A stretch of DNA of 64,000 nt, from positions 48,268,001-48,332,000 of the forward strand of contig CM069873.1 in assembly GCA_036172665.1 (NCBI GenBank), in the 5' to 3' direction. The first letter of the stretch is position 1. The number at the start of each line of letters is the position of its first letter. The notes below the pieces were generated by a model. The model ran no database searches, was not told the origin of the DNA, and saw only the letters and a program-made list of their open reading frames with translations. Shown here piece by piece: positions 1 to 63,900 of the stretch. This DNA is from Prosopocoilus inquinatus (lineage: Eukaryota > Arthropoda > Insecta > Coleoptera > Lucanidae). The position numbers were made by a program, and so were the translations under genes.

Positions 1-846
1 AGCGATATGACTATAGTGAAAATTATGCATCAGAACTAGTCGCAAGACTGAATTCTACCTTCGAAGTCGTTCGCCAAAAACTGAAGAAATCAGCAGGAAA
101 AAGGGAAAGACAGTACAATAAGAAGACGAGACCTACTGAATTTCAACTAGGAGATCTACCTGTACAACCCAGCCGTAAAACCAGGTTTGTCAAGAAAGCT
201 GAGTAAGAAGTGGGAAGGACCGTATAGAATAATGGAAAGGGTAGGTCCAGTAACATACAAAATCTCCAGAATAGGCAGAAATGAAGAACAAATAGTTCAT
301 GTTAACCGGTTAAAGTGGTATGAAGATAGTGAAGACGTTCAATCGGCACCTCCAAACCAAAAAGACAAGGAGGATGCTCCACCATCAGAGAACTCGAGCG
401 GCCCAGAGTCAGAAATAGAGTCGGAAGAAGACACTAGAATTCCTAGAAACCTAGAAGAATTGGAACGAGTGTATTTCGGTGGAGAGCCACCACAATTCCC
501 ATGGGAAAATGTCATGAACCCTCCAGCAGGAGAAATAGAACCCTGGATAGGAACCCCGGTATCATTAAACGAAGAACCGGCCAGGCAACGAGTGGTAATT
601 TTTAACCCAAATGCTTTGGATGAAATTCCCGAAGACCATCAGCTACAAGACGAAGAGCCGCCAGATTTGGTGAGTAATAGTAGTGCTGATGATGTCGGGA
701 CGGATGAAGAAGAACCAACAGCAGATCAGCAAGAAACGGAGCAGATCCAAGGAGATAATGAAAATAGCAGACCACCCGAACCATCCACTGACAACGAACA
801 CCGCTACGGGACAAGGAGTAAAGGCCCTGCAGAAACCCAGCCGTGA
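1..846 (+). pseudogene. 3' end of a Ty3/gypsy polyprotein (integrase C-terminus plus acidic tail), frameshifted
   Basis: The reading frame entering the window (about 1-186) encodes the end of an integrase, and the frame at 187-846 continues it with the GPY/F-type module (KKWEGPYRIMERVGPVTYKI, then a VHVNRLKWY motif). The change of frame near position 153 is a small deletion, because the tyrosine/asparagine/proline motif normally before this module is readable in the second frame. After the module comes an acidic, proline- and glutamate-rich tail of about 150 residues ending RYGTRSKG, as in the C-termini of many gypsy polyproteins. The start of the element lies outside the window and no 3' LTR could be delimited. 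It differs clearly from the intact gypsy at 50521-57059 and has no macro domain. It is a relic and not expected to be functional. Confidence 0.8.
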
Positions 847-22844: not shown

Positions 22845-23871
22845 TTAAGTTGGCACTGGTAACGGACACAAATTCGTTATAGTTCTTTTGTAAACGCCAC
22901 TTGGAGTTTTTACACTTACAACTCGAACTTTGCCGTCAGTTCCAGGAAACACTTCAACAATTCTTCCTAAAAGCCATCGTGCGGGAGGTAAATTTTCATT
23001 TTTTAAAATAACCATGGTTCCTACTGTACAACAATTTTTGCCTTGCTGCCATTTCTTTCTTTGTTGTAGATTACAAAGATAATCTCTACTCCATCTTTTC
23101 CAAAACTCTGACACATTTGTTGCATTAATTGATATCGGGATAATTTATTTATTGGTAAATGCAATAAACTTGGATCTGGAAGCATTATCATTACTTTACA
23201 AATTAAAAAATGTGACGGAGTCAGAGGTGTTAAATCAGTTGGATCTGATGACATGGCATGAAGGGGTCTTGAATTCAAGATTGATTCCACTTGAGTTAAC
23301 ACAGTTGAAAATTCTTCGTACGTCAAAATCGTTTCTCCAATTACTTTGGTGAGATGGAGTTTTACAATTTTTATATTTGACTCCCACAAACCCCCAAAAT
23401 GTGGAGATTTTGGTGGAATAAAATTCCATTTTACATTATATTGTGAGCAAAAATTAACAATAGAATCATTCGATTTTTTTAGAAATTGATTTAATTCTTT
23501 TAGTTGATTTGCAGCACCAACAAAATTTGTACCATTATCAGACCATAGTTCATTTGGGAAACCTCGTCTTGCTGAAAATCTACGTAAACATGAAATAAAA
23601 CATTCAGTTGTCAAATCAGATACTAATTCAACGTGAATTGCTTTTACAGCAAAACATATAAATAAACAAATGTAAGCTTTTGAAGTTTTATAACCACGAC
23701 CTTTACGATCCTTAATAATATAAGGACCAGCATAATCAATACCGGTAACTGAAAAAGGATGTAAAGGCGTTACTCTACTTTCAGGAAGATTACCCATTAT
23801 ATTATTTAAAAATACAGGCTTAGCCTTAAGACATATTAAGCAATTTCTGGTTATGTCTTTTTATTGCTAGA
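22845..23871 (-). pseudogene. BEL/Pao integrase, N-terminally truncated and frameshifted
   Basis: The frame opens within the zinc-binding region (NCLICLKAKP; the His pair is lost). It continues MGNLPESRVTPLHPFSVTGI and DYAGPY with the catalytic core: Asp in the TGIDYAGP block, Asp in LWSDNGTNFVGA, Glu in GGLWESNIKIVK. Near 23115 the frame shifts; the rest (SEFWKRWSRDYLCNLQQRKK, VGTMVILKNENLPPARWLLG) is the C-terminal DUF5641-type module typical of BEL/Pao, ending at 22845. The enzyme would insert element cDNA into host DNA; as it stands it needs a frame change to be made whole. Confidence 0.88.
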
Positions 23872-25877
23872 TTTTTTGAGTCACCTAACTTATTTTCATT
23901 ATATTTAAGCGGTAATCTTACAATGAAACGACCATCATCATTTCTTGTATAATTATTTATAAATATTTTTTCACATTCTTCATCATCATTAGACATAAAT
24001 TTAACAGAAGGACAATCCTCAATTGTCCAAAATTTATTTATTACGTCATGTAAAATTTGATTTTCATTTATGCTGAATAAACAATTGGAATTCGTATTGA
24101 ATGAATTAATCTGACCAGCTGTAATATAACCAAAACTAGTGTTTTGTAATATGGGCATATTTTTTCCCAAGAAAATTTTACCTGATCTGATTAAATTCCA
24201 AAAATGACTACCACCAATCAATAAATCAATTTCCTTTGATGTATTAAAATTAGGATCAGCTAATTTAACATTAGCTGGAATATTCCAACCAGAAATATCA
24301 ATGGTTCTAGATGGTAAATGATTTGTAATTTGTTCTAAAATTAAACAAGGAAGATTAAAATTGAAATTATTGTACATTGATTTCACACGAACATTACATT
24401 TTTTATTTATTTTGGAAGAACTTTGATTAATTCCAGTAATGTTCATGTTTATATTCTTTTGTGGTAACTTTAACTTGTTTATTAATCTTTTTGAAATAAA
24501 ATTTGATTGTGAAGCACTGTCTAATATTGCATTACAAATATTAGCATTTCCATTAGCATCATAAATCAACACCTGTGCTGTTGATAAAAGTACATAAGAA
24601 TTCAAATGACTATTTGTCAAAGCCATATCATTTTTATTAAAATTCTCCTCTGAAGGATGTAATAATGTATTATGATTTTGGTTGCAAATTTTACATGACT
24701 TTGATTTACAATCTTTAGTTTTATGACCTACACATAAACACTTTTCACATAATTTATTTTCTTTTACTTTTTCTAATTTCTGGTCGAACGACAATTTGGA
24801 AAAATCAAAACATTTATAAATTTTATGATTAGGTTTCTTACAATAATTGCAAGAAATTTTTCCTTTTGGAAGATTTTGAGACAAATAACTTTTTGAAATT
24901 CGAATATTTTCTTTATCATTATTCTTAGAAATCTTATTGTCCCTTTCTAATGACTCTAAAAGGTCAGCATGTTGTCTCAAAAAATCTTGCATATCCTTTA
25001 AGGATGGCGATTCATCTTTAAAGTTTTTAAATTTTTCCCATTCTATAGATGAATTTTTCTCAATTTTAGAAGAAATTAGAAATATTAATAAAGAGTCCCA
25101 TTTGTCGGTAGGTTGTCCCAAAGAATATAATGCACGCAAATGCTTTAAAATATTATCATTTAAATGACGTAATGCATGAGCATTCTCAAATTTAATAATG
25201 GGTAAATGAAATAGTGCTTTTATATGATTATGTACCAATATTCTTGGATTATTATAACGATTGCACAATAAATCCCAAGCTATTTTATAATGAGAAGCAG
25301 TGAATTCTAATGATTTCATTATTTCAAGTGGTTCACCTTCTAAGGTTGCCTTTAAATAATGAAATTTTTGAATTTCATTGATATAATCATTTACATGAAT
25401 AAGACTTTCAAAGGTATCTTTAAAATATAACCATTCATCATATTTACCATTAAATTTTGGCAAATTAATTATGGGCAATCTAATGTTATTTTTAATATTC
25501 TGATTTGACACAGAAGACTTTGACATTTCTGAAATATTTTCATGATGATTTGAAACTGTTTCATTACTTTTCAAAATTCTTTTTGCCATTGCAAAATATT
25601 TATTGTATTTATTTACAAATTCATCTCTCTCATTATACTGAATTTCAAGTACGTCATCATCACAACTTTGTTCAATATTTAACTGAACAGTTTCAAACTC
25701 ATCTAAAATTTGTGGCAAATTTTGTAATCTTATATCCATTTCTATTGCTTTTTGCTCATCAATATCATTAGAATCATTAAATTCATTAAATATGGGAGTT
25801 ACAAAAGTTACAAAATTAGTTAATTTACGTTTAACAGCTCCTCTGTTCCTCACCAAAGTATTGTATTCTTGCGCCAT
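23826..25877 (-). CDS. BEL/Pao gag-protease
   Basis: 683 residues from the ATG at 25877. N-terminal helical region, then a DUF1759-type gag domain (about residues 135-280: LPKFNGKYDEWLYFKDTFES, LKATLEGEP). Three Cys-rich nucleic-acid-binding motifs follow near residues 345-410 (CNYCKKPNHKIYKC, CEKCLCVGHKTKDC, CKICNQNHNTLLH), and then a DUF1758-type aspartic protease. The protease catalytic motif reads DSAS, where DSGS is usual, so activity is doubtful. The frame ends within the segment that normally leads into reverse transcriptase (GRFIVRLPLKYNENKLGDS), at the deletion junction. It packages element RNA in the family's life cycle. Confidence 0.88.
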   Translation of the reverse strand: MAQEYNTLVRNRGAVKRKLTNFVTFVTPIFNEFNDSNDIDEQKAIEMDIRLQNLPQILDEFETVQLNIEQSCDDDVLEIQYNERDEFVNKYNKYFAMAKRILKSNETVSNHHENISEMSKSSVSNQNIKNNIRLPIINLPKFNGKYDEWLYFKDTFESLIHVNDYINEIQKFHYLKATLEGEPLEIMKSLEFTASHYKIAWDLLCNRYNNPRILVHNHIKALFHLPIIKFENAHALRHLNDNILKHLRALYSLGQPTDKWDSLLIFLISSKIEKNSSIEWEKFKNFKDESPSLKDMQDFLRQHADLLESLERDNKISKNNDKENIRISKSYLSQNLPKGKISCNYCKKPNHKIYKCFDFSKLSFDQKLEKVKENKLCEKCLCVGHKTKDCKSKSCKICNQNHNTLLHPSEENFNKNDMALTNSHLNSYVLLSTAQVLIYDANGNANICNAILDSASQSNFISKRLINKLKLPQKNINMNITGINQSSSKINKKCNVRVKSMYNNFNFNLPCLILEQITNHLPSRTIDISGWNIPANVKLADPNFNTSKEIDLLIGGSHFWNLIRSGKIFLGKNMPILQNTSFGYITAGQINSFNTNSNCLFSINENQILHDVINKFWTIEDCPSVKFMSNDDEECEKIFINNYTRNDDGRFIVRLPLKYNENKLGDSKNLAIKRHNQKLLNMS

Positions 25878-28165: not shown

Positions 28166-30505
28166 TATTATCAGTAACTAAATTTGAAGTCATCTGTATA
28201 TGAGATTTATTACTAAATGTTAATTATGCATTTCAGATCTATCAAAACGAAGCAATGTTCTTCGTTCTTTAGGAGTGATAACAAATAATCAATTAACCCC
28301 AAGAGCAAGAAAGCTTTACCGAATAGTAGGTGACTTGAGGAAAACAGCAAAACGTTTATTTGTAGAACGAGCAAACCTCAAGACACGTCTTAAAAAAGCA
28401 GAGGAAGTTTTAACTTCATCAACGTATTTAAGTTTGAGACTTAATCCTACATCATACAATTTTGTGCACATGCATTAAGGTTTACAAAAAAGAAATCCTA
28501 AAGGTAGAAGATTTTCTGTTGATAAACTCCTTGCATTGACCTTAATGAAAAACAGTCCAAAGGGCTATCGATTACTCTGTAATTATTTTGCTCTACCATG
28601 TATAAAAACGTTAAATAATTTGTTGAAGAAAATTCCTTTACAGAATGGTATTAACAGTGTTATGATGAATAGCTTGAAAATACAAGTAGAAAAACTGAAA
28701 CTAGAAGACAGATATTGTACAATAATATTTGATGAAGTTGCACTGGAACCTTCATTATTCTATAGTAGAAGCAAAGATATTATTATTGGCTTTCAAGATA
28801 ATGGATTTAGTGACAGAGCACCTATACTTGCAGATAAAGCTATGGTATTCATGGCAAGAGGTATACATAAAAAGTGGAAACAGCCTTTATGCTACTTTTT
28901 TAATGATGGAGGTATGAAAGCTGATTACATTTCAAAATACGTCAGACTTGTCATTCAAGAAGCAAGATCAGTAGGATTAAAAGTTATAGGAATCGTCTGT
29001 GATCAAAGTAGTGCAAACATGAAAGCAATTAATATGTTCTATGAAGAAACGAAACAATACTGCATTTCAAATAGCATGGAAAGTACATATTTTGGGGTTT
29101 CTTGTGGATGGAGAAGAAGCGGTGCCCTTTTTTGATCCACCACATTTATTAAAGGGAATCAGAAATAACTTATTTGCAAACAATTGTCGTTTTACTTGGC
29201 GAAATAATAAAACTGAAATTGCCTCATGGGAAGATATAAAGAGATTATATGAATTGGAAGAGGACAAGGAAGAATATAGAATGTGTAACAAACTAACAGA
29301 CGTTCATATAAAGGACTTAAAGAAAATGAAAGTCAGTGTTGCGGCTCAAGTTCTTAGTCAAGGTGTTGCAGCTGTAATGCGTGGATTAGCACGATTAGGT
29401 GGTTACATTTCTATACACAATTATACTTCTTTCGAAAGGGAAATCAGAAATTATTTTTATTTTGCAGGTTTTCAGCACATGCCTACTCGCGCTGCTGAAA
29501 CAGCCGAATTTTTATTATTTATGGACCAAACGTTTGATAGTGTCAATGGTGCAATTTTATGAGATAAAAGTGGTAAGAAGCTCCTGTGTGCTGTTAGTGA
29601 AAACAGTAAGCATGAACAGTTCTGGCAAGGTGCAATAAATTTGCAATTTTTTTAATGAAGAGAAAGGAGAAATAAAGTTGTGCCTCCTTCGGTAAGAAAC
29701 TAGTACCATACATTAAAAGCATTTGTATACATATGGAGAAAATTGAGAAATGAGGGTTTTAAATATTTATGCCCACGTAACATAAATCAAGATCCCGTGG
29801 AAAACTTTTTCGGTCGTCATGGGGCCCGCAATGTTTACCCTACGTGTTATTCGTTCATTGCATCCTTCAAATCGATTATTGTAGGTAATGTTGCCTCAAT
29901 TAGCTGTAATGCAAACTGTGAAGATGACACTGCACAAATACTGCGTCCTTTAAAAGAATTTTTATGTGAAGAACGTGAAATTGTCCAAGGACTCAATACT
30001 CTTGGGAGATATAACTGAAGAAATTATTATACCTGATAATTTAAATTATTCTTTAATAAAAACTAGTACACTGAGCTACATAGCTGGTTACATAGCAAGA
30101 AAAATTTTTAAAAAGGTTAAATGCTGTAATACATGTAAGTTTGATTTAATTGGCAATATCAACAAGCTCAATGAGGAGGATGGTTTTATTATCAAAAATA
30201 GAAGTTTTCGCCCAAATTCCTTGCTGTCTCCTTCAACAACATTTAATAAATTATTTAAAAAATGCATATATATTTTAGATAATACTCTACCGCGTATTTG
30301 TTGCAAAAGTAATGTTGCCAGCACATTAAAATTTATATTATTGGCAAATATAAAAAATGAAATGTTAAGTTGTAAGGAACACGATGTCTTAGATTTAGTT
30401 ATTACTTCTACAGTAGAATTTCATTTATACACGTGGTGCAAGAATATTAATAAAATTTTGAAGGGTAAAATTCAATATAATAGTAATGACCTATTAAGTT
30501 ATTAG

Positions 30506-50233: not shown

Positions 50234-50520
50234 TACTTTTAATTGCCGATGTTCTGTTCTATTTTAGTCGATGTTTTGCCGTGAGGTTGACGGCTTCATC
50301 AAAACTTATGGCTAGTTTTTCAAATAATTTATACCAGACAAGAAACTGTTTCCCTTTATTTTTCTTTTCTTGGGCGAAAAAATGACAAAATATGTCCAGT
50401 GACCAAGAAGCTAATTGCCGTCCCTTGAACATGGCGCCCCCGTGCACTGCACGCTTTGCACACATGGTTACGGGAGCCCTGCAAGCATTGCGAGCAGATA
50501 ATCCCGCTTACGAAATGTAT
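50234..50520. other. Left flank of the young gypsy element
   Basis: 50234-50291 resembles the lead-in of the satellite at 3020-3073 (AATTGCCG, TTCTATTTTAGTCGA, GTTTTGCCGTGAGGTTGAC). The rest (to GTAT at 50517-50520, the target duplication) has no gene that I recognise. Confidence 0.55.
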
Positions 50521-50847
50521 TGTGGCGAGCCAACCTGACTTAGCGCAAGGCGTCAAGAAGTCGGTCCGCTTCGATGTGTCATCGGCCGTCACGCGTTCGG
50601 GGCCTATATCGAGCAAACTAGAATCTTCCAGCATAGAGACTTCCAGACGCCAGCAGTAAATATAAAATCGCCCGGAGTTGACTCACCAGTCAGTCGAATT
50701 CGAACAGCGATAGTCGAAGTTAGATTTTAGTGTGAAAATAAATTGTTAGAAATAAATTAGTTTTTAAGCTTTATTAAATTACGGTTAAGTTTTTATCGAG
50801 TGTTTTATTCGTTTAAATAAATAAACTCAAACCCTAGAAACGTAACA
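50521..50847 (+). repeat. 5' LTR of young gypsy element
   Basis: 327 bp, TG...CA. It carries the promoter at 50661-50695 and AATAAA-type poly(A) signals near its 3' end (several AAATAAA between 50735 and 50825). Confidence 0.95.
50661..50697 (+). promoter_or_regulatory. LTR core promoter: TATA box and initiator
   Basis: TATAAAA starts at 50661, and an arthropod-type initiator TCAGTC lies at 50690-50695 with its A at 50692, 31 bp downstream of the TATA start, the canonical spacing. The same pair exists in the 3' LTR (TATAAAA at 56873), where it could drive transcription into the right flank. Confidence 0.7.
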
Positions 50848-50936
50848 GTGGTGTCGGTGTGCGGGTTTGTGAAAATAAATAAACAATTTAAAGTAAATTA
50901 AATTTAATCAGATTATTAAATTATTAAAAAAAAACA

Positions 50937-53900
50937 ATGGCTACGAGAAAAGTTTTGTTGAAAGACTTAAAAGTGGCCGAATTAAAAACCGAATTGGAAG
51001 AACGAGAGTTAGAAACCTGTGGTTTGAAAGGCGCACTTCAACAGCGTCTCCGATCCGATTTGTTGACAGCTGGTGAAGATCCAGAGACGTTCCTTTTCGA
51101 AATTTCGTGTGGTCCCGTCGATTTTAATAAAATCTTGAAGGATGAATTTCGAGAACAATCCAGAAATTTCAAGGACGAACTTCGAGAACAATCCAGAAAT
51201 TTGGACGAGAAGTTTCTAGAACAATCTGGAAATTTCAAGGACGAACTTCGAGAACAATCCAGAAATTTGGACGAGAAGTTTCAAGAACAGTCTGGAAATT
51301 TAGAGAAGAAACTTCTAGAACAATCTGGAAATTTCAAGGACGAGCTTCGAGAACAATCCAGAAATTTAGAGGAGAAGCTTCTAGAACAATCTGGAAATTT
51401 CGATAAATTACAGAATAAATTGTTGGAACAATCTAGAGACTTAGACGAGAAATTTCTAGAGCAATCCAGAAATTTCGACGAGAAACTTCTAGAACAGTCC
51501 GGAAATTTGAAGGGTGAATTTCTAGAACAGACGAAAGGACTCGAAGATAAACTAGTGGTAAAAATATCGGAAGAAACAAGGAACTTGCAAGAAAATGTGG
51601 AAGAAATAATATTCCAGCAGGATAATAAAATCAAAAATCTGGAACAAATCATGGCGGGGTTGCGAGTGTTCGGGGATCAGCCACCAATAGAAGTACTAGA
51701 AAATAATGAAACCCGAATTGTGGAAGGACCAGCAGAAAATTCGAAATTAAAAATAAAACCACCGACGTTCGATGGAAAATCTTCTTGGCCCAACTACTTC
51801 AAACAGTTCGAAGCAGCAGCAAAGGCGAACAGATGGACGGCCAGCGAAAAAGCCACTTCGTTAATTGTGGCCTTGAGAGGGGACGCTATCGATGTGCTAC
51901 AGACGATGCCGCCAGAGGAACAAGAAGACTTCGACAAGCTGGTGAACAGGATGGAAATGCGTTACGGACAGGCCCATCTGACCGAGGTATACCATGCGCA
52001 GTTGAGGAATCGCTGTCAGAAATCCGGAGAAACTCTTCAGGAATTCGAAGCAGACGTTGCGCGTCTGGCCCAGTTGGCATATCCCACAGCTCCTGTTGAA
52101 TTCCTCAAATGTTTGACGGTGCAGGCCTTCATAGATGGAATCCGTGACCCAGACAACCAGCAGGCATTGAGAATGACCCATCCGAAGACGTCCAAGAACG
52201 CATTGGCTTATGCCTTGGAATTTGAAGCGGCGAGACGAGTCTCAAGAGGGCATGTCAAGGTGCGAGCGGCTATGGACTTCCAAGAGGAAGAAGAGGAAGA
52301 ATCCGCTAACGCCAAGGTGGGATCTGCTATAAAGGAGCGACCCAGGGAGTATACCACCGCCGAGGATGTTCGCCGCATTGTGGAACAGGTCTTCAAGCAG
52401 AAGAAACCGCTGGTGTGGCCAGGAGGAAGGACATGTTCGCAGGCGATGTCCAAAGCCCAGACAGGATCCAAGAAAGCCACAGTTAAACTAAGCCGGGTCG
52501 GTGCAGAGGGGCAAACGTCGACCCGTATTCAAAGGCCCCCAAAGACGAAAGCCAACCAAGTAATATCCCTGCGGCAGTTAACCAGCAGTATCTTCGTGGA
52601 TGTTACCATTGATGACATTCCTCACACCATGTTGTTGGATACGGGTGCGACGAAGACCATCCTAAGACCCGACGTCATTAAGTCATCTGGACGCACCGAG
52701 CCGACCAAGTGGAAACTGAAAACTGCAACTGGAACATCAGCAACTGTCCACGGTGAAGTAGAGGTTATCATCACCATTGGTTCAACTCCAATAAAACACC
52801 GTGCACTGGTGGCAGATATAGAGGACGAGGCAATTTTGGGCATAGACGTCATGTGTGCCCACGGGTTCCAATTGGACTTAAAGCGTGGCGTAATGGCGGT
52901 CAATAATGAGGAGTTGGTTCTTCATCAACGAGGGGACGTGGCCGCTCGAGTAGTCCTCGCTGAAGACGTTGTATTACCCAGCAGGACTGAGGTTATCGTC
53001 GACGCAAAACTGGACGGTGTTTTTCAAGATGGGCAAGTCATTATGGTTGAACCTAATACTGATGATCAAAGGATTGGAAGAGGAGTCCTCGTTGGAAAAA
53101 TGTTGTTGACGGCGAAGAAGGAAGTACCTGTCCGCCTGATGAACGTCAATTGTTTCTCCGTCAATATCAAGAAAGGAACAATCTTGGGAAGCTGCACCAT
53201 GGTGTCCTCCATCTCCCGCCAACTTGAAACAAACGTGCCAGAAGCGAAAGTCCCAAAGAAATTATGGGAAATGGTTATGTCAACAGCCCAGGAATTGACT
53301 CCAGACCAGAAGACAAAAGCAAAGAATCTGATCGGCCGCTATCAAGATGTATTTGAGGTAGAAAATGGATCCAAGGGAAGAACTGATGTCGTGAAACACA
53401 AAATAGAGACTGGAGAAGAAAGACCTATCCGTCAAGCTCCAAGGCGATTACCGTTGGCGAAGCGTGAGGAAGCGGAACGCATTATTCGCGAGATGGAAAA
53501 GGATAATGTAATAGAACCATCAAGCAGCCCGTGGGCGTCACCAGTAGTGCTTGTGAAGAAGAAGGATGGGTCCACCAGGTTCTGTGTAGACTACCGGTTA
53601 CTCAATAATGTCACCAAGAAGGACAGCTATCCCTTGCCACGGATTGATGATACCCTGGACACCCTGGCCGGCTCAAAGATCTTCTCAACTTTGGACTTAA
53701 AGAGTGGATATTGGCAAGTGGAGCTGGCGCCCGAAGATCGAGAAAAGACGGCGTTTTCCATTGGTATGGGTCTGTGGCAGTTCACAGTGATGCCATTCGG
53801 ATTATGTAATGCCCCAGCGACATTCGAGAGGTTAATGGAGACGGTTCTGAAAGGTCTGTCCTGGACAACGTGCATGGTGTACCTTGACGACATAATTGTC

Positions 53901-56750
53901 GTGGGAAAGACGTTCGACGACCACCTAAGGAACCTGGAAGGAGTGTTCCAGCGGCTTCGCGGAGCTGGACTAAAGCTTAGCCTCAAGAAGTGTCACCTGT
54001 TCCAGAAGGAAGTGAATTACCTGGGGCACATTGTTAATGGAAATGGAATCGCCGTGGACCCTGTGAAGATTCAGGTGGTGAAAGACTGGCCAACTCCCAG
54101 AAATAAACACCAAATAAGGAGTTTCCTTGGCCTGTGCACTTACTATCGGCGCTACGTTCCTGGATTTGCAGACATTGCTAAGCCGTTAACAAAACTCACT
54201 GAAGAAGGTCGTCCATTTGAATGGGACCAACAGTGTCAAATTGGCTTTGAACAACTAAAGCAGTACTTGGTTAGTGCTCCTATTCTGAGTTATCCTCTCC
54301 CGGAAGGCAAGTTCGTCGTGGACACAGATGCTAGCAACGTTGGGATTGGTGGCGTACTCTCCCAGATACAAGAGGGGCAAGAGAAGGTGATCGGCTACTT
54401 CAGTAAAGTCCTATCAAAGCCGGAACGAAACTATTGCGTCACAAGAAGGGAATTGCTAGCCGTCGTAAAAACGATAGAACACTTCTACAAGTACTTGTAT
54501 GGTAGACGCTTCCTGCTGAGGACCGACCACGCCGCTCTAAAATGGCTTCTCCGTTTCAAGAACCCAGAAGGGCAAGTTGCACGATGGATCGAACGACTTC
54601 AGGAGTACGATTTTGAAATTCAGCATCGGGCAGGAACTAGCCATCGAAATGCCGATGCTCTCTCGAGAAGGCCCTGTGCCGAAGACTGTAAGCACTGTAG
54701 TCGTTTGGACGAGAAAATAGCCACGACTGCGAGGACAGCCATTGTTGATGACAAATGGCAAGGCGAAGAACTGCGAAGAGACCAGGAGAACGACCCGGAT
54801 TTGAAATTAGTGCTAGAATGGAAAAGCAGGGACGCGAGGCCTACCTGGGAAGAGGTAGCACCATGTGCACCGTCCGCAAAATCATACTGGGCGCAGTGGG
54901 ACTCCATAGTGTTGGATCGTGGTCTTCTGAGACGAAGCATGGAGAATCCAGAAGGCATGGAAGAGAAGACACAGTTACTAATCCCCAAGAATAGGGTGCC
55001 AGAAGTTCTGAGGGAACTTCACGATGGAACTTCGGGAGGGCATCTGGGAGTTAAGAAGACTATGGAGAAGGTGCGCGAAAGATTTTACTGGGTGAACTGC
55101 AAGGAAGACGTGAAGGATTGGTGCAGAAAGTGTGCAGTCTGCGCAGCCAGTAACGGCTCCCACAGGCGGGGTAAGGCTCCCATGAGACAGTACAACGTTG
55201 GAAGTCCTTTTGAGAGAGTTGCCATCGATGTAGCCGGCCCGTTTCCAGAAACGAATGGTGGAAACAAGTACATCGTCGTGGTAATGGACTACTTTAGTAA
55301 GTGGGTTGAAGCTTACGCCCTACCTAACCAAGAGGCGGTCACTATTGCGGAAGTCCTTGTCAGGGAATGGATCAGTCGGTATGGTGCACCTATGGAACTG
55401 CATTCAGACCAAGGAAGGAACTTTGAATCGGCCTTGTTCAAGAACGTGTGTACTCTGCTCGGCGTACGAAAAACTAGAACAACTGCACTCCACCCACAGT
55501 CGGACGGAATGGTGGAAAGGTTCAATAGAACCATCAACCGACATTTGTCCAAGGTCGTTTCCAATCATCAGAGGGACTGGGACACGTACATCCCCCTGTT
55601 TCTAATGGCATACCGCTCATCTGTTCATGAGACAACAGGGGAGACTCCCGCGAAAGTGGTATTCGGGCGAGAGCCGAGACTGCCCTGCGACCTGAAGTTT
55701 GGTGTGAAGCCTGGCGAAGTCTCTGCCGACGAAGATTACGTGAGCAAATTACGCAGGAAAATGGATGATATCCACAACCAAGTGCGTCACAATATACAGA
55801 CGGCCAGCGATCGGATGAAGGAGCACTATGACATCAACGCTCAACACGGGGGATACCAACCTGGAGCACTGGTCTGGCTTTATAACCCCCAAAGACGTCG
55901 AGGCCTCTCCCCAAAATTACAGACCTCTTGGGAAGGTCCTTACAAAGTGATGAAACGGATTAACGACGTCGTTTACCGCATCAAGAAAGTCCCCCATGGC
56001 AAACCCAAAGTAATCCACTTCAACCGGATAGCCCCTTACCATGGAGAAGCAGATGAAGGGACAGTACAAAGGGCGCAAGTTTCCGAAGTGAACTTCGAAA
56101 CCTTCATGTCTCATCACGCCGAAGGAAGCAAGGCACGGTTTGGAGTGACCACGGAGAAGCAACAAGATCTCTTTAAAGTGCCACTGGAGTACAGTCTGGC
56201 CCACTGCGTAGCAGAAGACCTGAAAATGTCCAAAGGAATCGCTCAGGTGTTTAGGAAGAAATTTGGCCAAATCGAGGAGCTACGAAGACAGCATCCCGTG
56301 GTAGGCAAGAGCTTGCAGATCATTGATTCGACGGCAGATCGGAGGCGCCACGTGCATTATTTAGTCACTAAGAAGACATCAAGCGGTAAACCTGACTATG
56401 TGACTATGTGGAGAGCCCTATATAGCCTGAGGAGACAGCTAATAGAGAACCATCAGATGAAGTTAGCCATCCCCAAATTGGGCTGCGGATTGGACGGACT
56501 AGACTGGAGAGTAATTCGAAGCATGCTGGAAGTCATCTTCCACAGAACGGGAATTGAAGTCCTAGTCTGCAGCCACCACCCACAGGCAACAGTCAGCAAC
56601 AGCAAAACCGTAGACTGTTACTTCTTCCAGGCGGGAAGTTGCAAGAATGGGCCAGCATGTAGATTCCGACACCCTCCTTCAAGACTATCACCAGGAACAT
56701 TTCGAGACGAAACGTTTCTAAGAAGGGGGCAGTGTGGCGAGCCAACCTGA
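50937..56750 (+). CDS. Gypsy gag-pol polyprotein fused to a TARG1-like macro domain and CCCH finger
   Basis: 1937 residues, start context AACAATGG. Order: SAP-like N-terminus (LKVAELKTELEERELETCGL); about twelve 11-residue coiled-coil repeats (EQSRNFKDELR type, residues ~73-207); gag (~270-450) without a CCHC knuckle; protease DTGA (Asp568); reverse transcriptase FCVDYR (882) and YLDD (982-985); RNase H DTDAS (1129); integrase HHCC finger and D1431, D1491, E1527 (D-D35-E), then the GPY module. In frame after it, residues ~1734-1881 form a macro domain of the TARG1/OARD1 type: SLAHCVAEDLKMSKGIA, VTKK (Lys1812) and GCGLD (Asp1853), the two catalytic residues 41 apart as in TARG1. A C-x7-C-x5-C-x3-H finger starts at Cys1894. 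In the family this macro domain removes ADP-ribose from glutamate/aspartate. I infer a role in countering host ADP-ribosylation or in RNA binding. The stop codon is at 56748-56750, inside the LTR. Confidence 0.95.
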   Translation: MATRKVLLKDLKVAELKTELEERELETCGLKGALQQRLRSDLLTAGEDPETFLFEISCGPVDFNKILKDEFREQSRNFKDELREQSRNLDEKFLEQSGNFKDELREQSRNLDEKFQEQSGNLEKKLLEQSGNFKDELREQSRNLEEKLLEQSGNFDKLQNKLLEQSRDLDEKFLEQSRNFDEKLLEQSGNLKGEFLEQTKGLEDKLVVKISEETRNLQENVEEIIFQQDNKIKNLEQIMAGLRVFGDQPPIEVLENNETRIVEGPAENSKLKIKPPTFDGKSSWPNYFKQFEAAAKANRWTASEKATSLIVALRGDAIDVLQTMPPEEQEDFDKLVNRMEMRYGQAHLTEVYHAQLRNRCQKSGETLQEFEADVARLAQLAYPTAPVEFLKCLTVQAFIDGIRDPDNQQALRMTHPKTSKNALAYALEFEAARRVSRGHVKVRAAMDFQEEEEEESANAKVGSAIKERPREYTTAEDVRRIVEQVFKQKKPLVWPGGRTCSQAMSKAQTGSKKATVKLSRVGAEGQTSTRIQRPPKTKANQVISLRQLTSSIFVDVTIDDIPHTMLLDTGATKTILRPDVIKSSGRTEPTKWKLKTATGTSATVHGEVEVIITIGSTPIKHRALVADIEDEAILGIDVMCAHGFQLDLKRGVMAVNNEELVLHQRGDVAARVVLAEDVVLPSRTEVIVDAKLDGVFQDGQVIMVEPNTDDQRIGRGVLVGKMLLTAKKEVPVRLMNVNCFSVNIKKGTILGSCTMVSSISRQLETNVPEAKVPKKLWEMVMSTAQELTPDQKTKAKNLIGRYQDVFEVENGSKGRTDVVKHKIETGEERPIRQAPRRLPLAKREEAERIIREMEKDNVIEPSSSPWASPVVLVKKKDGSTRFCVDYRLLNNVTKKDSYPLPRIDDTLDTLAGSKIFSTLDLKSGYWQVELAPEDREKTAFSIGMGLWQFTVMPFGLCNAPATFERLMETVLKGLSWTTCMVYLDDIIVVGKTFDDHLRNLEGVFQRLRGAGLKLSLKKCHLFQKEVNYLGHIVNGNGIAVDPVKIQVVKDWPTPRNKHQIRSFLGLCTYYRRYVPGFADIAKPLTKLTEEGRPFEWDQQCQIGFEQLKQYLVSAPILSYPLPEGKFVVDTDASNVGIGGVLSQIQEGQEKVIGYFSKVLSKPERNYCVTRRELLAVVKTIEHFYKYLYGRRFLLRTDHAALKWLLRFKNPEGQVARWIERLQEYDFEIQHRAGTSHRNADALSRRPCAEDCKHCSRLDEKIATTARTAIVDDKWQGEELRRDQENDPDLKLVLEWKSRDARPTWEEVAPCAPSAKSYWAQWDSIVLDRGLLRRSMENPEGMEEKTQLLIPKNRVPEVLRELHDGTSGGHLGVKKTMEKVRERFYWVNCKEDVKDWCRKCAVCAASNGSHRRGKAPMRQYNVGSPFERVAIDVAGPFPETNGGNKYIVVVMDYFSKWVEAYALPNQEAVTIAEVLVREWISRYGAPMELHSDQGRNFESALFKNVCTLLGVRKTRTTALHPQSDGMVERFNRTINRHLSKVVSNHQRDWDTYIPLFLMAYRSSVHETTGETPAKVVFGREPRLPCDLKFGVKPGEVSADEDYVSKLRRKMDDIHNQVRHNIQTASDRMKEHYDINAQHGGYQPGALVWLYNPQRRRGLSPKLQTSWEGPYKVMKRINDVVYRIKKVPHGKPKVIHFNRIAPYHGEADEGTVQRAQVSEVNFETFMSHHAEGSKARFGVTTEKQQDLFKVPLEYSLAHCVAEDLKMSKGIAQVFRKKFGQIEELRRQHPVVGKSLQIIDSTADRRRHVHYLVTKKTSSGKPDYVTMWRALYSLRRQLIENHQMKLAIPKLGCGLDGLDWRVIRSMLEVIFHRTGIEVLVCSHHPQATVSNSKTVDCYFFQAGSCKNGPACRFRHPPSRLSPGTFRDETFLRRGQCGEPT

Positions 56751-57059
56751 CTTAGCGCAAGGCGTCAAGAAGTCGGTCCGCTTCGATGTGTCATCGGCCG
56801 TCACGCGTTCGGGGCCTATATCGAGCAAACTAGAATCTTCCAGCATAGAGACTTCCAGACGCCAGCAGTAGATATAAAATCGCCCGGAGTTGACTCACCA
56901 GTCAGTCGAATTCGAACAGCGATAGTCGAAGTTAGATTTTAGTGTGAAAATAAATTGTTAGAAATAAATTAGTTTTTAAGCTTTATTAAATTACGGTTAA
57001 GTTTTTATCGAGTGTTTTATTCGTTTAAATAAATAAACTCAAACCCTAGAAACGTAACA
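56733..57059 (+). repeat. 3' LTR of young gypsy element
   Basis: 327 bp. The polyprotein stop codon falls 16-18 bp inside it, so the last few residues are LTR-encoded. One substitution relative to the 5' LTR. Confidence 0.95.
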
Positions 57060-57063
57060 GTAT

Positions 57064-60931: not shown

Positions 60932-63900
60932 CTATCCCCCTCTTAGTTCTGTTCGTCACGAACAGAGTACGGAGCCAAACGGTCGACGTGGATCACTCTC
61001 ACCTTCCCATGGAGTAGCTTTTGTATCCTATAGACCACATAATTGATCCTCCTAATTATTTGATAGGGTCCATCCTAAGCCGCCTGTAGTTTGGGGCACA
61101 GTCCACGAGTCCTTCTGAGGTTGTATAGCCATACCTGGTCCCCTTCTTGGAATACTGTTTCATTGGCTCGTCGATCGTAACGGGTCTTCATTTTGTCTGT
61201 CACGAAACTGATGTTACGTCGGACGTATTCGTGAATGTTCTAGTCGCCCAAATTTTAAGTCACAAGCAGACGCATTCGTCTTCCGAATAAGACACTGTAT
61301 GGAGTTCGTTCAGTAGTGTCATGCTCTGCAGAACGGTACGCCATCAGAAAAAGGGGAAGATGTTCGTCCCAGTCCCGTTGGTTCTTCGAAACACTGACGA
61401 AACGCTCCACGATTCCATCTGACTGTGGGTGCAAGGGAGTTGCTCACGTTTTGAAAATTCCTAGTAACCTGGTCAATTTCTGGAAAATGTGTCCTTCAAA
61501 GTTTCTGCCTTGGTCGGAATGAATCTCCATAGGTACTCCAAATCTTGTTATCCAATTCTCTATCAAGGCATTCACAACGGTTACTGACTCTTGGTTTGGC
61601 AAAGCATAACCTTCTGGCCGTTTGGTGAAATAATCAGTCATTACCATAATGTATTTGTTTCCATGGTTGGTTTCTGGAAATGGACCAGCTATGTCAATGG
61701 CAATCCTCTAGAATGGTGCACCAACGTTGTAAGGGTGTAATTTTCCGCGAATCTTTTTCACGGGTCCGGATACTGCAACACATGTAGTACACCTGGCACA
61801 CCAATTTTCCACATCAGTTCTACATTTCGCCCAGTAGAACCTTTCTCATACTTTCGACAATGTCTTGTTGATGCCCAAATGTCCACCGGACGTACCGTCA
61901 TGAATCTCTTCCAGGACTTCAGCGACCCTTACCCTTGGAAGAACGAGTTGGTCCTTCATCTCACTCCCATCAGGTGTTTCCTATTTTCTCATTAGCAACC
62001 CATTCTTCAACTCCAGAGAATCCCATTGTGCCCAATAGGTTTTAAACACTGGATTCTTCCCGGATATCTCTGCCCAGATGGGACGTTGCTGTCTTTCCTT
62101 CCATTCGATTATGGTTCTTATTTCAGGATCTTCTCGCTGTTCCATTTTAATGGTCACGATTTACCACCTGTCTACTACGACGCCCGGTTTTCTGATGGGA
62201 ATTATCCCTTCTTTATTTTCTGCTTTGGAGCAGTGCCGACAATCCTCAGGACAAGGTATTCTGGAAAGTGCATCCGCATTATTATAGACTCGACCTGGAC
62301 GATTGTTGATTATAAAATCATACTCCTGTAATCTTTCTATCCATCTGGCAAGCTGGCCTTCTATGATCTTAAACTGAAGCAATCATTTCAATGCTGAATG
62401 GTCTGTTCGAAACTCTCGGCCATAAAGATACTTGTGAAAATGCTCTGTTGTCTTCACCGCGGCAAGAAGCTCCTTTCTGGTTACACAGTAGTTCCTTTCG
62501 GCTTTCGACAAAACTTTACTGAAGTAACCAATAACACGTTCTTGCACTTGTGACAGTACGCCTCCAATCCCGTAGTTGCTAGCATCACTATCAATAATAA
62601 ACTTGCCCTCTGATCTTGGATAAGATAATATAGGAGCAGTCATCAAAAGATCCTTCAGATTGTCAAAGGCTTCTTGGAAGTCCACGCTGCCTCTGCAAAG
62701 TCCTTAACGAATCGTCTGTAATAGGTGCAGAGCCCCAAGAAACTTCTTAATTCGTGCACATTCTTCGGTGGTGGCCAGTTCTTAACAGCTAAAATCTTGT
62801 CCGGGTTGTTCGCAACTCCTGCCTCAAAGATGACATGTCCAAAGTATTTCACTTCCTTCTGGAAAACTTGCATTTCGCTGGATTTAATTTTAGCTTCGCC
62901 TCTTCAATCCTTTGGAAAACGTTCCTCAGATTTGCAAGGTGTTCTTTGAAGGTTCTTCCAACCACAATTACATCATCTAAGTATACGAGGCAAGTCTTCC
63001 AGCTAAGTTCGCGCAATACCAATTCCATAAGTCGCTAAAAATTGACTGGGGCATTGCATAGATCAAAAGGCATCAACTTCAACTGCTATAGATCAGTACC
63101 TGCAAAGAAGACTGCCTTTTCCTTGTCTTCGGGATGCATTCCAACTTGCTAATAGCTATTTTTCAAGTCCAGAGTAGAGAACCATCTAGCACCGGATAAG
63201 ATGTCAATTGTGTCATCAATCCGAGGTAAGGGATAGCTATCCTTTTTCGTGATATCATTTAATCGCCTGTAGTTCACACAGAAACGCGTGCTGTCATCCT
63301 TTTTAGTTACAAGTACAACAGGAGATGCCCATGGACTTTGCGATGGTTCAATAATTCCTTGGTCCTGCATCTTCTTGATTACTTGTTAGCCTCTTCTCTC
63401 CTCGCCAATGGCAGTCTTCGTGCGGGTTGACGAATTGGATTCGAATCGCCAGGGTTAAGTCTTCATCGGTAAAGGCGAAGATTCTTTTGAATTTTCGAGA
63501 CAGTCCTCCTATGTCTTCTGTTTCCGTGGGTGTTAACGATGTTGATACATCTTCCAGGAAATTTTTCTAATAGTGATGGTAGAGTATCAGACTCATGCCG
63601 AGCACCGTTTACTTGAATGTGGTTTACACAAGCAATTGCTTCACATTTATCCACCACTGTTCCGCTGGATATGGTCACTGGGTAACTGTTGACATTTGCA
63701 AGACGAATAAGAATTGTTTCTTGGATCTTCACCAGAGTCCCACCCAGTAAAATTCCTTTCTTGACTCTGCTGATCTAAGTTTGCTCTATGATTCCGGCAG
63801 GATAGCTACCAAGGTTGCCTTCCAACTTCGCCAGAATTAACTTATCGGTTAAGGCTGGAATGTTTACCGTTTTTCCTCATGAAGTCCACTCCCAGGATGA

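What the first reader, a model, noticed from the sequence alone, without database searches (positions are those of the whole stretch)
56104..56610. TARG1-like macro domain at the C-terminus of a retrotransposon polyprotein
After the integrase GPY module the same frame continues into a macro domain whose closest family, by motif wording, is TARG1/OARD1 (terminal ADP-ribose protein glycohydrolase). The catalytic Lys (1812) and Asp (1853) are kept with the TARG1 spacing of 41. LTR elements sometimes carry an envelope, chromodomain or dUTPase here, but an ADP-ribose eraser is unusual. Macro domains of RNA viruses counter PARP-based host defence, so a retroelement could use one against ADP-ribosylation at DNA damage or integration sites.
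Basis: partly seen in the sequence, partly recalled or inferred. Interest (0 to 1): 0.92.

Follow-up and report, generated by a model that had tools for sequence, protein, structure and literature searches.

The report
Jumping gene carrying an ADP-ribose eraser
This virus-like jumping gene, sitting in what is likely a beetle genome, carries behind its DNA-inserting enzyme a domain that matches the human ADP-ribose-removing enzyme TARG1 and keeps its two catalytic residues, so it would likely strip ADP-ribose marks from the element's own DNA ends or nearby proteins while it copies and inserts itself.

The parts
50517..50520 (.). target-site duplication GTAT (left)
50521..50847 (+). 5' LTR, 327 bp, TGT...ACA
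   Evidence: one mismatch to the 3' LTR
50937..56750 (+). single gag-pol ORF, 1937 aa
50958..51059 (+). SAP domain at the N-terminus of Gag
   Evidence: PF02037, 27.3 bits, cut-off 23.9
51106..51562 (+). 33-bp tandem repeats in gag (11-residue repeat)
   Evidence: family D1
52596..52850 (+). aspartic protease
   Evidence: PF13650, 38.2 bits
53553..54167 (+). reverse transcriptase (Pfam match 53553-53996 within the piece scanned)
   Evidence: PF00078, 115.6 bits; end set by me for the comparison with relatives
54222..54608 (+). RNase H
   Evidence: PF17919 and PF17917
54981..55487 (+). integrase zinc-binding (H2C2) and core (rve)
   Evidence: PF17921, PF00665
55935..56036 (+). integrase C-terminal GPY/p58_C module
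   Evidence: PF22938, 45.7 bits
56043..56141 (+). linker to the macro domain; partly disordered in the model
   Evidence: pLDDT under 50 at residues 118-127 of the piece 55698-56747
56142..56576 (+). TARG1-type macro domain
56370..56372 (+). Lys 1812, at the place of TARG1's catalytic Lys (number K84 recalled)
56493..56495 (+). Asp 1853, at the place of TARG1's catalytic Asp (number D125 recalled)
56616..56672 (+). CCCH zinc finger, C-x7-C-x5-C-x3-H; among solved chains most like residues 121-143 of CPSF4
56720..56732 (+). polypurine tract AAGAAGGGGGCAG, read as the ..RRGQ.. tail of the ORF
   Evidence: RRGQC in 114 of 240 proteins
56733..57059 (+). 3' LTR
57060..57063 (.). target-site duplication GTAT (right)

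Best explanation
This is a Ty3/gypsy LTR retrotransposon whose Pol continues past the integrase into a TARG1-type macro domain and a CCCH zinc finger, and that domain is predicted to act as an ADP-ribosyl hydrolase that would keep the element's cDNA ends, integrase or nearby proteins free of host-added ADP-ribose during reverse transcription and integration. Shown: the fusion, the fold match of the model, the kept residue pair, its spread over many element families and its presence in most of the young copies sampled. Inferred: that it binds and hydrolyses ADP-ribose; that it stays tethered to the integrase by a flexible linker (or is cut free by the protease) and so works where the cDNA is; that the host modifies those targets; that the CCCH finger binds RNA. 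The macro tree fits a single uptake in this lineage, possibly from an insect TARG1.
For: Fold and residues. Conservation: among 145 records with integrase or CCCH beside the macro (window included), K in 143 of 144 with a letter there and D in 142 of 145; over 27 clusters at 80% identity K in 25 of 26 and D in 25 of 27, although cluster representatives are only 45-64% identical to the window (which corrects). Macro identity to six relatives is 57-62%, the linker before it 25-48%. Own-genome copies chosen by RT DNA: 33 of 39 keep an intact macro with K and D; macro pN/pS 0.29 (27 nonsynonymous, 26 synonymous), integrase 0.43. Element macros form one clade (100/99; 100/98; 87/86). Other retroelements hold a TARG1-type domain. 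TARG1 is reported to remove ADP-ribose from Glu/Asp and from phosphorylated DNA and RNA ends in vitro (passages of PMC8385414).
Against: No activity, binding or expression was tested. P0012 (K to R, D to G) and P0021 (K kept, D to S) form one element lineage (86/93; 99/91) that keeps macro and CCCH; the Diabrotica protein P0027, inside the element clade, has R and E; so hydrolysis is not always needed. The macro is no better kept than the RNase H-integrase linker (53-64%) and less than RT and integrase core. In variants shared by two or more copies the macro is looser than integrase: pN/pS 0.28 against 0.14, and 0.85 (9 N, 3 S) in the macro-chosen sample. K and D are not the best-kept columns: 27 and 35 of 147 columns are at least as conserved. 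A decayed relative 4 kb away has integrase but no detectable macro. Origin from an insect TARG1 is backed (85/92), weak (77/73) and not seen, where insect TARG1s group with other animals' (81/84).
Confidence: 0.55

Rival explanations
1. Reader, not eraser: the macro domain would bind ADP-ribosylated chromatin or proteins and steer the integrase, in the way chromodomains at the same place in the polyprotein steer chromoviruses (recalled); catalysis would be incidental.
For: Position behind the GPY module; flexible linker in the model; a lineage without the full pair keeps the domain.
Against: K in 25 of 26 and D in 25 of 27 clusters, more than a pure binder should need (inference). 18 of 24 different 3' flanks start with RTAY, a DNA-level preference that needs no reader, though it excludes none.
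Confidence: 0.2
2. Counter-defence: the domain would erase ADP-ribose that host PARPs put on element RNA, Gag or silencing factors, as macro domains of RNA viruses are held to do against PARPs (recalled).
For: TARG1-like folds among predicted proteins of insect-associated viruses, the best hit a Kadipiro virus VP8 model at 42% identity; TARG1 removes ADP-ribose from RNA ends in vitro; CCCH finger suggests RNA contact.
Against: No PARP restriction of insect retroelements stood out in the one search made (listing of 12 of 13 papers only). It overlaps with the main reading; only the target differs.
Confidence: 0.17
3. Passenger: a host exon picked up by chance and carried without use.
For: Chance capture explains presence in one element; the macro evolves faster than RT and IN core and no slower than the RNase H-integrase linker.
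Against: Kept in frame with both residues over families 45-64% identical to the window; stops inside in 3 of 150 scored copies (sample chosen by this same protein); 33 of 39 intact in the RT-chosen sample; several retroelement groups carry the same enzyme type.
Confidence: 0.06
4. Assembly or annotation chimera.
For: None found.
Against: Many near-identical copies at different places of one assembly, 24 different 20-base 3' flanks among 28 copies read, and the same fusion in records of other species.
Confidence: 0.01

Closest known systems
TARG1 / OARD1 / C6orf130 (human; PDB 4j5s, 4j5r)
   Different: Stand-alone host enzyme; here a C-terminal domain of Gag-Pol followed by a CCCH finger
DarG macrodomain (bacterial DNA ADP-ribose eraser; PDB 5m3i, 5m3e, 5m31)
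   Different: 21-25% identity; antitoxin in bacteria
Macro-domain proteins of fish epsilon-like endogenous retroviruses (Basta et al. 2009, cited in PMC4977317; that paper itself not seen)
   Same: Retroelement with a macro domain; P0244 from a loach joins a PFV-like integrase to a TARG1 match at E 1.4e-40
   Different: Retroviral integrase; reported there as additional open reading frames. Whether P0244-P0246 are the elements of that paper was not checked
Ty3/gypsy elements with accessory domains (chromodomain, SF1 helicase, DnaQ exonuclease; part 1 of 4 of PMC6338049)
   Same: Extra domain carried in the LTR polyprotein
   Different: Accessory part is an ADP-ribosyl hydrolase type; the part of that paper read names no macro domain

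Membership tests
TARG1/OARD1 macro domain | TARG1 fold rather than another macro class | tested here: met
TARG1/OARD1 macro domain | Catalytic Lys and Asp, spacing 41 | tested here: met
   K1812, D1853, aligned to the TARG1 chain
Pfam Macro PF01661 (general family) | Score above the curated cut-off | tested here: not met
   17.4 bits, cut-off 22; 2 of 9 other records scanned reach it, P0103 and P0028. Read as a limit of the general model, since the TARG1-specific match is strong
TARG1/OARD1 macro domain | Hydrolysis of terminal ADP-ribose | not testable with these tools
   needs an assay
Ty3/gypsy (Metaviridae) | Order protease-RT-RNase H-integrase with GPY/p58_C | tested here: met
Ty3/gypsy (Metaviridae) | LTRs TGT...ACA with short target duplication | tested here: met
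   327-bp LTRs, GTAT duplication
Ty3/gypsy (Metaviridae) | tRNA primer-binding site behind the 5' LTR | tested here: inconclusive
   TGGTGTCGGTG starts one base after the LTR; the tRNA was not identified
Chromovirus | Chromodomain behind the integrase | tested here: not met
   none listed at E up to 1 in the two pieces 55101-56102 and 56001-56747
Errantivirus (gypsy with envelope) | env ORF between pol and the 3' LTR | tested here: not met
   the pol ORF itself runs into the 3' LTR
CCCH zinc finger | C-x7/8-C-x5-C-x3-H | tested here: met
   PF00642 27 bits, cut-off 20.5

The most novel reading that the evidence does not exclude
Animal retroelements have taken up TARG1 again and again, at different places of their polyproteins (behind integrase in insect gypsy, behind a retroviral integrase in fish, between protease and RT in a second gypsy family of the same insect genome, behind RNase H in others), because ADP-ribosylation of retroelement cDNA ends or integration complexes is an undescribed host restriction that these elements erase.
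Probability: 0.3. Interest if true: 0.9.

Novelty: new variant of a known kind. Interest (0 to 1): 0.74.

Why it matters
If the domain is active, it implies that ADP-ribosylation acts against, or at least on, retrotransposition in insects, a link for which the one search made here listed no clear support. It turns an open question (does any host ADP-ribosyltransferase restrict retroelements, and on which substrate?) into a simple enzyme test, and it warns that gene catalogues may name pieces of these elements 'OARD1-like' host genes.

Tried and rejected
Errors of mine: the RT query was out of frame (stops set to X); redone in frame, whose numbers are used. The CCCH pattern was wrong (x8 for x7), also redone. 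The labels missed some element records (for example the Molorchus cluster); the counts were redone by a clearer rule (27 clusters, where one search had 23), and those are used.

Macro remnant behind the decayed relative (60967 downwards): a resemblance seen by eye was tested with a profile of element macros in six frames; best score -1.3 bits, below the best of 200 block shuffles (4.4 bits); rejected.

Retroelement fusion among viral contigs: the single-sequence query found no relative (11 stretches matched a pattern); the profile query kept 80 of 136 loci, and none of the 80 has a match to the integrase or RT-RNase H piece at E up to 1e-3; they are likely phage-type TARG1/DarG relatives (inference).

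Proof of independent captures by the macro tree alone failed: a joint clade of beetle-type and fish macros is not rejected (p-AU 0.218), nor one of beetle-type and the second gypsy family (p-AU 0.305). The claim of separate captures rests on position and on the different retroelements, and stays likely, not shown. P0103 (behind RNase H) lies on the insect side, and elsewhere; its branch is long.

pN/pS is biased because copies were picked by macro protein similarity; the RT-picked sample is preferred but small and very young. The macro-only P0028 type was not found as a distinct family in this genome: best 50% identity among 141 scored of 1553 candidates.

Literature (CC-licensed PMC only): searches showed no paper on a macro domain in Ty3/gypsy elements; only 20 of 3,379 papers were listed, 20 of 63, 20 of 21. 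Repbase and subscription journals were not searched. Seen: passages of PMC4977317, PMC8385414 and PMC7217437 (irrelevant), part 1 of 4 of PMC6338049; the rest only as listings. The TARG1 paper PMC3642678 is not held, so the numbers K84/D125 are recalled.

Full report
What is there. The window holds a Ty3/gypsy LTR retrotransposon at 50521-57059. Its LTRs are 327 bp, begin TGT, end ACA, differ at one base, and are flanked by GTAT on both sides. One frame of 1937 codons runs from 50937 to 56750. Scanned piece by piece, it holds a SAP domain, aspartic protease, RT, RNase H, integrase zinc-binding and core domains and the GPY/p58_C module. No stop separates the integrase from what follows.

A CCCH finger (C-x7-C-x5-C-x3-H) follows at 56616-56672; among solved chains it is most like residues 121-143 of CPSF4, a short match from which only 'likely RNA-binding' can be taken. 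The ORF then reads through the polypurine tract into the first 18 bases of the 3' LTR; the resulting RRGQC tail recurs in 114 of 240 related records. No CX2CX4HX4C knuckle was found in the window copy's Gag, while the relative P0211 has one.

Spread. Two database searches (126 and 220 proteins at E up to 0.001, 120 listed each) gave 240 records, all with a macro match. Of these 133 also match the integrase or RT-RNase H piece, 130 with integrase before the macro, and 124 of the 133 carry the CCCH finger. Named hosts in the element group are beetles (Aromia, Molorchus, Brassicogethes, Gonioctena, Callosobruchus, Exocentrus, Acanthoscelides, Pyrocoelia), and a macro-only branch includes two leafhopper proteins catalogued as OARD1-like. 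Taking the 145 records with integrase or CCCH beside the macro (window included), K is kept in 143 of 144 with a letter and D in 142 of 145. Two clusters dominate (102 Aromia, 16 Molorchus), so the fairer count is by cluster at 80% identity: 27, K in 25 of 26, D in 25 of 27, representatives 45-64% identical to the window. Exceptions: P0012 and P0021, one lineage; P0223, an Aromia copy with D to G; P0037, cut short before K; and, outside this set but inside the element clade, the Diabrotica protein P0027 with R and E.

How well is it kept? Against six relatives the macro is 57-62% identical, the linker before it 25-48%, the CCCH finger 46-57%; but the RNase H-integrase linker is 53-64%, and RT (77-83%, four relatives) and integrase core (74-82%) are kept better. 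So the macro is constrained, but not more than other non-core parts of Pol.

Own genome. The window's assembly has 649.6 Mb in 173 contigs. The macro-CCCH piece gave 1482 candidates, of which the best 150 were scored: all 98-100% identical, 3 with a stop inside. To avoid picking by macro, the best 40 of 1129 candidates were taken by RT DNA. Of the 39 other than the window, 33 have an intact macro with K and D, 1 has a stop, 2 have a 3-bp deletion (one takes the Lys codon), and 3 lack all or most of the macro in the best alignment block. pN/pS against the window copy, 38 distinct copies: macro 0.29, integrase 0.43, CCCH and tail 0.46, linker 0.69; for variants shared by two or more copies macro 0.28 and integrase 0.14. 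Counts are small and the copies young. Among 24 different 20-base 3' flanks (28 of 30 loci read; two of the 24, from L084 and L101, look like one duplicated insertion), 18 begin RTAY. The best match to the Aromia protein P0029 (61%) is a two-unit host-type locus on C5, so this genome likely belongs to a beetle and has its own TARG1 (inference).

Other captures. In the same genome a different gypsy family (L211-L215) holds a TARG1-type domain (L214: E 1.3e-32 to TARG1) upstream of RT: in L214 one frame runs from a protease-like stretch (weak PDB match, E 0.008) through the macro into RT, and L215 has the same 834-aa frame; in L211-L213 the frame breaks behind the macro. In fish, P0244-P0246 (two loaches, a barb) join a retroviral-type integrase core to a TARG1-type domain (P0244: TARG1 1.4e-40, PFV integrase 5e-23). 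P0103, P0107 and P0243 put one behind RNase H; the last two end inside the macro. Trees place these outside the clade of integrase-macro gypsy domains, but joint clades are not rejected (p-AU 0.218 and 0.305). Separate capture is therefore likely by position and host element, not proven by the macro tree.

How it likely works. TARG1 is reported to remove ADP-ribose from glutamate/aspartate and from phosphorylated DNA and RNA ends in vitro (passages of PMC8385414). An enzyme of this type joined to the integrase by a linker that the model leaves disordered would sit where cDNA ends, integrase and target chromatin meet. The simplest mechanism is that it would keep these free of ADP-ribose added by host PARPs. 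Each step beyond the fold and residues is inference. A reader role and an anti-PARP role on RNA or Gag are the main rivals; the lineage without the full pair favours at least some non-catalytic use.

Known or new. Fish epsilon-like ERVs with macro-domain proteins are in print (passage). Eight literature searches showed no Ty3/gypsy case, some of them seen only in part; the library is limited to open licences and Repbase was not seen. I file it as a new variant of a known kind: an LTR retrotransposon with a captured accessory domain of a type not found in print for this group.

Noticed in passing
window 60967-63355, minus strand: Decayed relative gypsy (integrase 51%, RT-RNase H 53-64% identical to the window element), broken by stops; no macro domain detectable behind its integrase.
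   Followed up: partly
L211-L215 (own genome): A different gypsy family with a TARG1-type macro domain between protease-like stretch and RT.
   Followed up: partly
P0244-P0247 (two loaches, a barb, Triplophysa): Predicted fish proteins with a TARG1-type macro; P0244-P0246 also hold a retroviral-type integrase core by Pfam.
   Followed up: partly
P0012, P0021: Element lineage that lost one or both catalytic residues but keeps macro and CCCH finger: a possible ADP-ribose reader.
   Followed up: partly
P0023, P0024 (Macrosteles), P0027 (Diabrotica): Catalogued as OARD1-like but fall inside the element clade: likely element pieces or co-opted copies.
   Followed up: no
window 51106-51562: 33-bp tandem repeats in gag give an 11-residue repeat; weak apolipoprotein-like Pfam scores.
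   Followed up: no
window 23021-25877, minus strand: DUF1759 and integrase-core ORFs, likely a BEL/Pao element (label recalled).
   Followed up: no
window 28536-29559: TNP-like RNase H and GTP-binding insertion domains, likely a P-element-type transposase (label recalled).
   Followed up: no
window 187-846: ORF beginning with an integrase p58_C module, remnant of another gypsy-type element; no macro match.
   Followed up: no
BFVD A0A8E0KJF2 (Kadipiro virus VP8): Top viral structure match, 42% identity over 165 columns against 35-37% for human TARG1: viruses found with insects may use the same enzyme type.
   Followed up: no
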